From: Treponema sp.
Lineage (GTDB): Bacteria > Spirochaetota > Spirochaetia > Treponematales > Treponemataceae
Assembly: GCA_012520945.1 (NCBI GenBank)
Contig: JAAYNH010000052.1
Location: forward strand, 1-41,441
DNA length: 41,441 bases
Direction of reading: 5' to 3'
In this document: positions 186 through 4,946 of the stretch, in pieces
How the letters are laid out: every line of letters begins with the position of its first letter
Position numbering within the stretch: position 1 is the first letter of the stretch
The notes under the pieces: generated by a model
Told to the model about the DNA's origin: nothing
Seen by the model: only the letters and a program-made list of their open reading frames with translations
Databases searched by the model: none
Translations under genes and position numbers: made by a program

Positions 186-212
186 GACAAATTGAACGTT
201 GTTCAATATACT
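184..212 (+). promoter_or_regulatory. Promoter of the TetR/DUF2141 operon
   Basis: A perfect TTGACA at 184-189 is separated by 17 bp from TATACT at 207-212. The spacer and -10 box lie inside the inverted repeat at 192-225, so bound repressor would block polymerase directly. Confidence 0.85.
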
Positions 213-225
213 GAACAACGTTCAA
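192..225. promoter_or_regulatory. TetR-type operator (perfect 14-bp inverted repeat)
   Basis: The arms TTGAACGTTGTTCA (192-205) and TGAACAACGTTCAA (212-225) are perfect inverted repeats around a 6-bp spacer. Each arm contains a smaller near-palindrome around AACGTT, so two regulator dimers may bind, as in QacR-like sites. The site covers the spacer, -10 and start region of the promoter and ends just before the regulator's ribosome binding site. This is the expected layout of an autorepressed TetR gene. Confidence 0.85.
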
Positions 226-1960: not shown

Positions 1961-1984
1961 AACATGACAAGCTTTTGTCATGTT
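1961..1984. promoter_or_regulatory. Operator copy 1 (WYL regulator promoter)
   Basis: A perfect 10-bp inverted repeat, AACATGACAA (1961-1970) and TTGTCATGTT (1975-1984), separated by GCTT. A TATAAT box lies at 1992-1997, 7 bases after the repeat. The position 17 bp upstream of that box has no consensus -35, so the repeat occupies the -35 region. A second copy with the same 24-bp length lies before the GyrI-like gene at 3045-3068. Confidence 0.8.
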
Positions 1985-1991
1985 TTTGTGT

Positions 1992-1997
1992 TATAAT
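1992..1997 (+). promoter_or_regulatory. -10 box of the WYL regulator gene
   Basis: A consensus TATAAT lies about 45 bases before the proposed ATT start. No good -35 hexamer lies at 16-18 bp spacing; the inverted repeat takes that place. This fits either an activator-dependent promoter or tight autorepression. Confidence 0.6.
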
Positions 1998-2041
1998 TAA
2001 AGTTCAGAACTACTTTGACAGCATAAAAAAAGGAGCGTAAT

Positions 2042-2977
2042 ATTAAAATCGATCGCCTTCTTTCCATATTAGTACTTCTTCTCAGAAAAAAACGAGTCCA
2101 AGCCAAAGAGCTTGCCAAAAAGTTCGAAGTTTCAACACGCACTATTCTAAGGGATATCGATGCGCTTAACCTTGCTGGTATTCCGATTATTACCTACCAA
2201 GGCATAAATGGTGGCATTGAAATTGCAGAAGGCTATAAACTTGATTCGAATGTACTAAGCACAGAGGAAATGCTTGCAATGATAACTTCTCTTAAAAGCA
2301 TGGCTAATGTAATACCTGAAAGTCAGCATGAAATGTTACTTGAAAAGTTAAAAAGTATTCTCTCAAAAGTGCAACTTGAAAAACTGGAAGAAAAATTCAA
2401 GGAAATGATAATTGACCCTTCTTCATGGTTTGGTTTTAAAAACATAAGCGAAACGTTCCTTAAACTTAAAAATGCAATCAGCAAAAAACAAAAAATAGCC
2501 TTTTCTTATTTGGACAGCGAAGGGCGCGAAACAAAAAGAGAATGCGAACCCTACTTTTTAATCATGAAAGGGCAAGCTTGGTATCTTTTTGCATTTTGCC
2601 TTTTACGAAAAGATTTCCGTTTTTTTAAACTCAGCCGCATATCAGATTTTTTAGTAACAAATTCAATTTTCAAGGCTCGCCCCATCCCAGAAGAAAAAAG
2701 AATCGCAGAACAAAATTGGGAAAGCAATGTAAAAATGATAAAGCTTGAACTTGCATTTGAAAAAAACATGAAAACTCATGTAAACGAGTGGTTTTATGAT
2801 TGCCCACTAAAAGAAATAAACGAAAGGTTTTTTGTTGAAAAAAACTTCCCCGACGAAAAATGGCTTATAGGCTTTATTTTGGGTCTTGGCACAGGAGTAG
2901 AAGTAATAAAACCCCTAAGCCTTAGGCAAAAAATTGTAAAAGAAGCTATGGAAATTGCAAAAAAACATAGTAGTTAA
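2042..2977 (+). CDS. YafY-type HTH/WYL-domain transcriptional regulator with an ATT start
   Basis: The continuous frame encodes 311 residues. Residues 1-60 form an N-terminal winged HTH (KIDRLLSILVLLLRKKRVQA, then AKELAKKFEVSTRTILRDID). The WYL domain begins near residue 144, with the WYL signature at 180-182 and the FFKLSRI strand at 195-200. The first ATG in frame is at 2270 and would delete the whole DNA-binding domain. Family members begin M-K-I-D-R; here the codon at that exact place is ATT (2042-2044), 6 bases after AGGAG (2031-2035), with no ATG, GTG or TTG in the 76 codons before 2270. I therefore propose initiation at ATT; an ATG-to-ATT mutation that weakens expression is the alternative. 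WYL domains sense small ligands or nucleic acid. It probably controls itself and the GyrI-like gene. Confidence 0.8.
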   Translation: MKIDRLLSILVLLLRKKRVQAKELAKKFEVSTRTILRDIDALNLAGIPIITYQGINGGIEIAEGYKLDSNVLSTEEMLAMITSLKSMANVIPESQHEMLLEKLKSILSKVQLEKLEEKFKEMIIDPSSWFGFKNISETFLKLKNAISKKQKIAFSYLDSEGRETKRECEPYFLIMKGQAWYLFAFCLLRKDFRFFKLSRISDFLVTNSIFKARPIPEEKRIAEQNWESNVKMIKLELAFEKNMKTHVNEWFYDCPLKEINERFFVEKNFPDEKWLIGFILGLGTGVEVIKPLSLRQKIVKEAMEIAKKHSS

Positions 2978-3044
2978 TCAAAATAAATATCTGGAGAAAG
3001 TTTTTTCTTCAAGTAGATATAAAAAAAATGTTATATTAAACTTA

Positions 3045-3068
3045 AACATGTCATACACTTGTCATGTT
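3045..3068. promoter_or_regulatory. Operator copy 2 (GyrI-like gene promoter)
   Basis: AACATGTCAT (3045-3054) and TTGTCATGTT (3059-3068) form an inverted repeat matching at 8 of 10 positions around ACAC. Its right arm is identical to that of the site at 1961-1984, and the total length is the same (24 bp). A TATAAT box follows at 3077-3082, 8 bases after the repeat, nearly the same geometry as copy 1. Confidence 0.78.
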
Positions 3069-3076
3069 TTACCCCT

Positions 3077-3082
3077 TATAAT
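3077..3082 (+). promoter_or_regulatory. -10 box of the GyrI-like gene
   Basis: A TATAAT box sits 8 bases after operator copy 2, with no consensus -35 at the normal distance. Transcription should start near 3089, leaving a leader of about 115 bases that holds a hairpin and a 12-codon frame. Confidence 0.6.
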
Positions 3083-3130: not shown

Positions 3131-3169
3131 ATGAACTACAAAAAAAGAAATGAAAGCTGGAACTTATAA
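3131..3169 (+). CDS. Possible 12-residue leader peptide or gene remnant
   Basis: ATG at 3131 follows a strong ribosome binding site (GAGGAG, 3118-3123) and opens a frame encoding MNYKKRNESWNL before TAA. Removing one A from the A7 run at 3140-3146 would instead give MNYKKEMKAGTYKLPF before a stop, so this may be the decayed start of a lost gene. Its position 35 bases ahead of the GyrI-like gene would also suit translational coupling. No known attenuation motif is seen. Confidence 0.3.
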   Translation: MNYKKRNESWNL

Positions 3170-3203: not shown

Positions 3204-3833
3204 ATGAAACATGAATGGAAAAAGAACGAGAAACAATTCTATTTACCGAAGAACAAACCTGAATTGATAAGTATCCCCAAATTTAAATATTTCACAATTG
3301 ATGGAAGCGGAAATCCCAATGATGATTTTTTTGCTGAATACATTGGTGTTTTATATTCTTTATCTTATGGAATAAAAATGAGCCCCAAGAAAGGAATTGA
3401 ACCCAAAGGATATTTCGATTATACGGTTTATCCTCTTGAAGGAGTTTGGGACATAAATGATGAAGCCAAGAAATCATTTGACGGGACAATAAATAAAAAC
3501 ACTTTAGTTTTTAAATTAATGATACGACAACCTGACTTTGTTGACAAAGATTTTGCTTTACAAATACTCGAACAGACTAAAAAGAAAAAGCCACATGTTT
3601 TATTAGAACAAGTCAGATTTGAAGAAATAATAGAAGGCGATTGTATTCAAATGCTGCATTTAGGCAGTTATGACAATGAACCTGAAAGTTTTAAAGTCAT
3701 GGAAAGTTTTGCTGAACAAGAAAAATTTAGTCGAAAATCAAAAACTCACCGAGAAATCTATCTTAGCGACGCAAGAAAGGTTTCCCCAGATAAATTGAAG
3801 ACTGTTTTGAGATTTAGTGTTGAGAAAAAATAA
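3204..3833 (+). CDS. GyrI-like small-molecule-binding protein
   Basis: A 209-residue protein of the GyrI-like (SHS2-fold, COG4832-type) group. The opening pattern is typical: LPKNKPELISIPKFKYFTID followed by G-x-G-N-P-N, the segment YTVYPLEGVWD at about residues 74-84, VLLEQVRFEEI near 131-142, and the closing HREIYLSDARKVSPDKLKTVLR block. Some relatives act as cyclopropanoid cyclopropyl hydrolases that detoxify DNA alkylators; others bind gyrase or drugs. ATG at 3204 follows AAAGGAG (3191-3197). It is transcribed alone, downstream of the WYL regulator gene, from a promoter with nearly the same operator. I infer it is the target of that regulator. A terminator follows at 3913-3949. Confidence 0.83.
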   Translation: MKHEWKKNEKQFYLPKNKPELISIPKFKYFTIDGSGNPNDDFFAEYIGVLYSLSYGIKMSPKKGIEPKGYFDYTVYPLEGVWDINDEAKKSFDGTINKNTLVFKLMIRQPDFVDKDFALQILEQTKKKKPHVLLEQVRFEEIIEGDCIQMLHLGSYDNEPESFKVMESFAEQEKFSRKSKTHREIYLSDARKVSPDKLKTVLRFSVEKK

Positions 3834-3949: not shown

Positions 3950-4004
3950 AAAATGTAATTTCATCTGGAATTTTGACAGCCAACAGGGAATATGGTATTA
4001 TTAG

Positions 4005-4832
4005 AATAAGTCTTTGCACTGCATGGTGCATGTAAACCCCGTTGGTGACACTGAGTTTAAAAATTCATATATGGTTTTACAAAATCAAAACCTTGGTGAA
4101 GAAATTCGTGCCGGTTATGCAGGAAATAATGCTATTAATGTTTATATAGGAGTAAATAATTCTTTTATACGCATTAGTGATGTTGAAATAGAGCTTTTAC
4201 AAACAGCCGTTCCTGTTGACAATTACTCATGGAATGGTTATAAAACTACAATCAAAGTAGGAGATAAAATATTTGTCAATCCTGTATTTCTTCCTGCAAA
4301 TGCAACAGATACAAGTGTTAAAACATGGGCATCATACAATACATCGATTGTTACCGTTGATTCATATGGCGTTATCACAGGTGTAGCACCAGGAACCACC
4401 GGTATTTATTTCCACTCCAACAGTAATAATAAGTATGGTAGTTTTGATGTTACTGTTGAGCCTGTTGCAGGTGGTTCCGATATTGTTCACAATTTTACAA
4501 CATCGGGAATAACAAGTGATTTTTTCACAATTGTTGGAAATACTGCAACTAATAAAGGTTCTGTTACATATGACAATTTAACATTAACAACGTGTCTGAA
4601 AATGGAAACAGCTACAAAAATTAGTTTTTCAATTACTGAAAATAAAACTTTAATATTAGTTTTAGGTGCTGTAGTAAACGGAACAAATGAGGGTGCTAAC
4701 AAAAATGTTAAGATTAACGATACAAATTATAAATCCAATGCAGATGGAATTATTACTTTAGATTTAACTTCAGGTAATTATGAAATCAAAAAACAAGACG
4801 TTGCAAATCTGTTCTATATTAAGTTACAATAA
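4005..4832 (+). pseudogene. 5'-truncated exoprotein fragment with an Ig-like (BIG2) domain
   Basis: An open frame starts after a TAG at 4002-4004 and codes for about 270 residues. The only early start is TTG at 4014, without a ribosome binding site, and there is no signal peptide. After an N-terminal stretch of unknown fold comes a bacterial Ig-like group-2 domain (about residues 68-148: KVGDKIFVNPVFLP, then TWASYNTSIVTVDSYGVITG and VAPGTTGIYF), then a beta-rich C-terminal domain (about 155-272) like the terminal module of secreted pectate lyases. Such a protein should be exported, so I read this as the 3' part of a larger gene that lost its 5' end. A short frame in another phase at 3952-4029 may be more of the remnant. 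An intact cytosolic protein is unlikely. Confidence 0.6.
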
Positions 4833-4858
4833 CATATGAACAATTAACGTCTAAATAC

Positions 4859-4887
4859 TTGCATAAGTGTTATTTTTTCGCTATAAT
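4859..4887 (+). promoter_or_regulatory. Promoter of the rpsP operon
   Basis: TTGCAT (4859-4864), 17-bp spacer, TATAAT (4882-4887). A second TATAAT at 4908-4913 lacks a -35 partner. The leader of about 53 bases ends in TGGAGGAA. Confidence 0.7.
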
Positions 4888-4946
4888 AAAATATTATATT
4901 ATTAGGCTATAATGCAATTTATTATAATTTTATGGAGGAATCTAAC

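What the first reader, a model, noticed from the sequence alone, without database searches (positions are those of the whole stretch)
1961..3068. Matching 24-bp operators before the WYL regulator and the GyrI-like gene
Two inverted repeats of identical length, with an identical right arm and near-identical distance to a TATAAT box, precede both genes, and both promoters lack a -35 consensus. This defines a small regulon and a candidate binding motif (AACATGWCAW-N4-TTGTCATGTT) for a WYL regulator; few have known sites.
Basis: seen in the sequence. Interest (0 to 1): 0.62.

Follow-up and report, generated by a model that had tools for sequence, protein, structure and literature searches.

The report
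WYL regulator sites replacing the -35
The two matching DNA palindromes are very probably binding sites of the neighbouring WYL regulator; the same site, at the same distance from the promoter, recurs in two bacterial phyla before genes that look like protection against DNA-damaging chemicals, so it probably works as a switch-on site and not as a simple repressor operator.

Summary
Two 24-bp inverted repeats (1961-1984, 3045-3068) lie 7 and 8 nt before perfect TATAAT boxes of a WYL gene (2042-2977) and a GyrI-like gene (3204-3833). They are the only exact matches in the genome. The motif generalises to AAYATGACA-N6-TGTCATRTT: it occurs in 85 of 274 genomes of the family and 27 of 291 genomes of the class of Sedimentibacter (Bacillota), with zero reversed-pattern matches in both sets. 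It sits beside WYL, GyrI-like, SPL-like radical SAM, SAP-domain, DUF1706 (ClbS/DfsB) and UDG genes. It co-occurs with the WYL subfamily in 76 of 85 motif genomes, against 32 of 189 others.

New here: over 76 gene-facing sites from two phyla and unrelated genes, the -10 box lies 7 or 8 nt after the palindrome in 67, a -35 box is absent, and the palindrome's centre lies on the -35 position (-32). That is the layout of the WYL activators DriD and PafBC, whose half-sites it resembles. The protein is closest to those two, with the ssDNA-sensing residues invariant. The likeliest reading is an ssDNA-activated homodimeric activator of a genotoxin-response regulon. Repression is not excluded, and nothing was tested at the bench.

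The parts
1961..1984 (.). WYL binding site 1, AACATGACAAGCTTTTGTCATGTT (perfect palindrome; extends to 1960-1985)
   Evidence: cross-genome motif
1989..1997 (+). extended -10 element TGT-TATAAT of the WYL promoter, 7 nt after site 1; inferred start of transcription about 2004
   Evidence: spacing rule
2030..2035 (+). Shine-Dalgarno AAGGAG of the WYL gene
2042..2977 (+). WYL-family transcription regulator (HTH_11, WYL, WCX; 311 aa), start codon ATT
3045..3068 (.). WYL binding site 2, AACATGTCATACACTTGTCATGTT
   Evidence: cross-genome motif
3077..3082 (+). -10 element TATAAT of the GyrI-like promoter, 8 nt after site 2; inferred start of transcription about 3089
3204..3833 (+). GyrI-like protein (209 aa) of the cyclopropanoid-hydrolase kind; keeps W85, E157, E185, Y187 of Lin2189
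   Evidence: PMC5684135

Best explanation
The palindromes are binding sites of the adjacent WYL protein, acting as a homodimer. Each is centred on the -35 position of a promoter that has a good -10 and no -35. By analogy with DriD and PafBC, single-stranded DNA from damage binds the WYL domains and frees the DNA-binding domains. The dimer then sits on the palindrome on the face opposite sigma domain 4 and anchors RNA polymerase, switching on its own gene and the GyrI-like gene. The GyrI-like enzyme is predicted to open reactive cyclopropane rings of DNA-alkylating compounds. Shown by sequence: the site, its genome-wide rarity, its cross-phylum recurrence beside WYL and GyrI-like genes, the fixed geometry, the absent -35 and the conserved sensor and catalytic residues. 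Inferred: binding by this WYL protein, activation, the ssDNA signal, and the enzyme's substrate.
For: Motif specificity: 85 of 274 family genomes and 27 of 291 Clostridia-class genomes, reversed control 0 in both. Neighbours are WYL, GyrI-like, DUF1706, SAP, radical SAM and UDG. Co-occurrence with the WYL subfamily: 76 of 85 against 32 of 189, odds ratio 41. Geometry: -10 at 7-8 nt in 67 of 70 sites with a -10, flat in the opposite direction (68/76 against 10/66); -35 mean 2.0 of 6; 40 of 70 with TGn. DriD: site over the -35, constant distance to the -10, -35 of 1-2 of 6, consensus ATACGAC-N7-GTCGTAT (PMC12340889). PafBC promoters: tTGTCRgtg-8 nt-TannnT (PMC5656591). Profile against PDB: PafBC 1.6e-44, DriD 4e-14, BrxR and CapW mostly 1e-7 to 1e-10 on the WYL domain only; the fold aligns full length with PafBC and DriD. 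R193, F195, R199, W180, Y181 and HTH R33, R37 are invariant in 25 homologues.
Against: 34 of 70 sites have a perfect TATAAT and 40 have TGn, so these promoters might fire without help; DriD promoters have poor -10s. A site over the -35 also suits a repressor. BrxR and CapW show that WYL proteins can repress. DriD's spacer is 7, ours 8, and DriD does not regulate itself. The exact DriD-type sequence TACGAC-N8-GTCGTA is not enriched in the family. Nine motif genomes lack a strong WYL hit and 32 WYL genomes lack the strict motif.
Confidence: 0.6

Rival explanations
1. The WYL protein is a repressor. It covers the -35 region of extended -10 promoters, limits its own gene and the GyrI-like gene, and leaves the DNA when its WYL domain binds a ligand (CapW/BrxR-like).
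For: The site covers -44 to -21 and the -10s are strong. Negative autoregulation is a very common design. WYL repressors BrxR and CapW bind palindromes of about 19-27 bp (PMC9122588, PMC9122601).
Against: The distance to the -10 is fixed over unrelated genes in two phyla, while repressor operators usually shift. BrxR's site lies downstream of the -10 and CapW's overlaps it. BrxR and CapW are the more distant relatives and align only over the N-terminal two thirds.
Confidence: 0.3
2. The palindromes are recognised by some other transcription factor that also controls the WYL gene.
For: Nine motif-bearing genomes gave no strong WYL hit, among them one 98% complete.
Against: Strong co-occurrence and physical linkage with the WYL subfamily, and half-sites like those of DriD and PafBC (PMC12340889, PMC5656591). 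Several of the nine are incomplete drafts.
Confidence: 0.07
3. The inverted repeats are transcription terminators of the upstream genes, similar by chance.
For: Both lie between genes on one strand; site 1 scores as terminator-like.
Against: Identical arms in unrelated genes and phyla, constant distance to a -10, sites also in front of leaderless genes; site 2 has only a short T run and was not called.
Confidence: 0.02

Closest known systems
DriD of Caulobacter crescentus (WYL activator; PDB 8TP8, 9PFQ, 9PFV)
   Same: wHTH, helical linker, WYL, WCX; palindrome with half-site ATAYGAC; site centred on the -35 at a constant distance from the -10; poor -35
   Different: Spacer 8 instead of 7; T/A where DriD has C/G; stronger -10s; other target genes (DriD: didA, bapE, recJ, dnaG); the window gene carries its own site while DriD does not regulate itself
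PafBC of mycobacteria (RecA-NDp promoters)
   Same: Closest solved relative by sequence; right half-site TTGTC placed 12-13 nt before the -10 (12 in RecA-NDp)
   Different: PafBC is a heterodimer on a non-palindromic motif; here one protein and a palindrome
SiwR of Mycobacterium smegmatis
   Same: Homodimeric WYL activator; palindrome between -35 and -10; controls DinB-superfamily genes, as DUF1706 here
   Different: Site is 19 bp with a GGA at -26; actinobacterial; no GyrI-like gene mentioned in the passages read
BrxR and CapW (WYL repressors of phage defence)
   Same: WYL dimer on a palindrome
   Different: Sites overlap or follow the -10; linked to phage defence; weaker sequence and fold match
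Cyclopropanoid cyclopropyl hydrolases YtkR7, C10R6, Lin2189 (GyrI-like)
   Same: P0001 matches Lin2189 over its length and keeps the catalytic glutamates and two residues of the aromatic cage
   Different: Control of the known ones by a WYL protein is not described in the paper read; activity of P0001 untested

Membership tests
DNA-damage WYL activators (DriD/PafBC/SiwR) | wHTH - linker - WYL - WCX architecture | tested here: met
   Pfam HTH_11, WYL, WCX and PafC HTH; model with wHTH, helices 74-121, WYL, WCX; full-length fold match to PafBC and DriD
DNA-damage WYL activators (DriD/PafBC/SiwR) | beta4/beta5-loop arginines and phenylalanine needed for ssDNA sensing | tested here: met
   R193, F195, R199 invariant in 25 homologues; F195 aligns with PafC F200
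DNA-damage WYL activators (DriD/PafBC/SiwR) | Site over or just downstream of the -35, fixed distance to the -10, poor -35 | tested here: met
DNA-damage WYL activators (DriD/PafBC/SiwR) | ssDNA-dependent DNA binding and activation; induction by DNA damage | not testable with these tools
   needs bench work
DriD | Consensus ATACGAC-N7-GTCGTAT | tested here: not met
   Here ATATGAC-N8-GTCATAT; exact TACGAC-N8-GTCGTA not above control in the family. Not filed as DriD itself; works like it
BrxR/CapW repressors | Site overlapping or downstream of the -10 | tested here: not met
   Sites end 7-8 nt before the -10
BrxR/CapW repressors | Linked phage-defence genes | not tested
   PADLOC not run; Pfam of the immediate neighbours scanned names none
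GyrI-like cyclopropanoid hydrolases | E157, E185, W85 and Y187 (Lin2189 numbering) | tested here: met
   phmmer alignment to 3B49/5X5M, all four aligned with identical residues (PMC5684135)
GyrI-like cyclopropanoid hydrolases | Hydrolysis of yatakemycin or CC-1065 | not testable with these tools
   enzyme assay needed

The most novel reading that the evidence does not exclude
An undescribed SOS-independent genotoxin response, shared by Spirochaetota and Bacillota, in which an ssDNA-activated homodimeric WYL protein reads a palindrome that replaces the -35 and switches on genes, many of them leaderless, for cyclopropane-opening and other detoxifying enzymes and for DNA repair (GyrI-like, ClbS-like DUF1706, SPL-like radical SAM, UDG, SAP).
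Probability: 0.4. Interest if true: 0.8.

Novelty: new variant of a known kind. Interest (0 to 1): 0.62.

Why it matters
Few WYL regulators have known sites. Here about 100 distinct sites from two phyla give a sharp motif and a fixed promoter geometry. They link DriD, PafBC and a large unstudied group of 'YafY family' proteins by a common half-site (GTC) and position. They also tie GyrI-like and DUF1706 proteins to one regulator, which predicts a function (genotoxin defence) for many genes of unknown role and gives direct bench tests.

Tried and rejected
Chance repeat: rejected. Terminators: rejected by arm conservation and -10 spacing. The exact DriD consensus half-sites with spacer 8 as a family-wide motif: no enrichment, control higher. 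Plasmid DNA search with the window region: no match. Literature search for the motif letters gave only noise; YobU/YobV and YafY/GyrI searches found no paper on this regulon. Own-genome near matches at C24 and C38: control rate, dropped. The fructosamine-kinase direction of divergent sites has no -10 at the rule distance, so those genes are probably not controlled from that site. The tree of WYL proteins shows the motif label clustered (7 changes against 16 shuffled), but loci were partly chosen by motif, so it is weak evidence.

Full report
WHAT IS THERE. The window is a contig (C13) of a 2.19-Mb, 119-contig draft genome, 95% complete, with no held genus-mate. Site 1 is perfect over 11-nt arms; site 2 has two mismatched arm pairs. 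Neither promoter has a -35 box at 16-18 nt (best 1/6 and 3/6); site 1 has an extended -10 (TGTTATAAT). The chance expectation for the motif with 3 mismatches is 0.05 in the window. In the whole genome there are two exact matches, both here; with two mismatches two more appear, no more than the reversed pattern gives.

THE GENES. The WYL protein (2042-2977) has HTH_11, WYL and WCX domains. It has no ATG at its start: the reading frame, the AAGGAG at 2030-2035 and the alignment with homologues put the start at ATT 2042. The GyrI-like protein (3204-3833) matches Lin2189 (PDB 3B49, 5X5M; E 3e-40), and the four residues shown there to matter for cyclopropane hydrolysis (W85, E157, E185, Y187; PMC5684135) align with identical residues (the chain numbering is offset by 3).

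THE MOTIF ELSEWHERE. The exact motif occurs in one other genome of 274 in the family, G004, of another genus: one of its two sites lies upstream of two GyrI-like genes, the other beside a second kind of GyrI-like gene. Loci fetched only because they hold WYL or GyrI homologues showed variants of the same palindrome in several genera. The generalised pattern AAYNTGACANNNNNNTGTCANRTT occurs in 85 of 274 genomes (7 of 20 genera), up to 8 times a genome, with 0 matches of the reversed pattern in all 274. A WYL homologue in Sedimentibacter acidaminivorans (Bacillota, 36% identity) has the same layout: palindrome, WYL gene, palindrome, GyrI-like gene. In 291 genomes of its class, 27 have the pattern and none the reversed one; 17 of the 27 loci show a WYL, GyrI-like or SPL-like radical SAM gene beside it, and the closest WYL relative of all (L095, 43% identity) is followed by a site, TGCTATAAT and another GyrI-like gene. 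A Priestia megaterium and a Monoglobus record show the same. Pfam of genes beside sites: DUF1706 (the ClbS/DfsB family, from general knowledge), SAP_new25, DUF3781, radical SAM, UDG, fructosamine kinase, GyrI-like/Cass2. Across the 274 genomes, 76 of 85 with the motif have a strong hit to the WYL subfamily profile, against 32 of 189 without it (Fisher p 2e-31; within genus g4 67/74 against 18/126). The genomes are related, so the p-value overstates independence, and the profile was built from motif-bearing loci.

GEOMETRY. 104 distinct sites were collected. For 76 site-and-direction pairs facing a gene of the listed families, 70 have a -10 within 5-10 nt, 67 of them at 7 (14) or 8 (53) nt after the right arm. 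In the opposite direction of the same sites the distribution is flat (68/76 against 10/66 at 7-8 nt). The -35 hexamer is absent (mean best match 2.0 of 6, below that of permuted consensuses, 2.6). 40 of 70 carry TGn before the -10, and 26 of 70 have an ATG 6-7 nt after the -10, i.e. leaderless messages, which independently supports the -10 assignment. With the -10 at -12 to -7, the palindrome is centred at about -32, on the -35 hexamer. Sites whose neighbours were not in the family list often show the same -10 distance.

MECHANISM. DriD binds ATACGAC-N7-GTCGTAT over the -35 at a constant distance from the -10; its promoters have 1-2 of 6 matches to the -35; it is activated by ssDNA and anchors RNA polymerase (PMC12340889). 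PafBC promoters read tTGTCRgtg-8 nt-TannnT (PMC5656591). The present consensus can be written ATATGAC-N8-GTCATAT followed by 9-10 nt and TATAAT. It shares the half-site with DriD except for one base, and places the TTGTC of the right half within 0-1 nt of its place in PafBC promoters. By sequence profile the protein is nearest to PafBC, then DriD, with BrxR and CapW behind. The predicted model (mean pLDDT 80.6, pTM 0.52) aligns full length with PafBC and DriD, but only to about residue 220 with BrxR and CapW. The pTM is modest, so domain arrangement is not relied on. The arginine and phenylalanine residues of the ssDNA-binding loop and two recognition-helix arginines are invariant in 25 homologues. 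The best-supported mechanism is therefore activation by an ssDNA-bound homodimer that substitutes for the missing -35, with positive autoregulation. The main doubt is the strength of the -10 elements, which would suit a repressed promoter equally.

WHAT IS SHOWN AND WHAT IS NOT. Shown from sequence: the sites, their rarity, recurrence, linkage, geometry and conserved residues. Inferred: that this WYL protein binds them, that it activates, that ssDNA is the signal, and that the GyrI-like enzyme hydrolyses cyclopropanoids. No experiment was run. The literature library held nothing found on this motif or regulon, but it lacks most subscription papers and regulon databases, so prior description cannot be excluded.

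Noticed in passing
window 2042-2044: The WYL gene starts with ATT, a rare start codon, where most homologues have ATG, TTG or GTG; a Clostridia homologue (L166) seems to have ATA at the same place. The first ATG is 76 codons further and would remove the DNA-binding domain.
   Followed up: partly
window 192-225: A 34-bp near-perfect palindrome (TTGAACGTTGTTCAATATACTGAACAACGTTCAA) overlaps the TTGACA/TATACT promoter of the TetR-family gene 236-811: a likely TetR autoregulatory site.
   Followed up: partly
window 3131-3169: The leader between site 2 and the GyrI-like gene holds a 12-codon reading frame with its own Shine-Dalgarno-like sequence (MNYKKRNESWNL).
   Followed up: no
sites in L063, L066, L068, L073, L078, L081, L127, L129, L132 and others: Many genes of this regulon in genus g4 are leaderless: the ATG lies 6-7 nt after the -10, at the expected transcription start.
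   Followed up: partly
L086 (genome G158, 98% complete): Two sites (radical SAM and fructosamine kinase side) but no strong WYL subfamily hit in the genome; the regulator may be missing from the assembly or replaced.
   Followed up: no
L120 and L026: Variants with the two half-sites one base closer (GAC-N7-GTC, as in DriD) near WYL genes in Enterococcus gilvus and an order-level relative.
   Followed up: no
genomes G015, G031, G072-G074, G076, G078, G079 (genera g16, g20): Have strong WYL subfamily members without the strict motif; their sites may be diverged.
   Followed up: no
L122, upstream of 4001-4927: A Staphylococcus aureus plasmid carries a related WYL gene with TTGACATTAGTATGTCAA upstream, next to a DJ-1/PfpI gene.
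   Followed up: no
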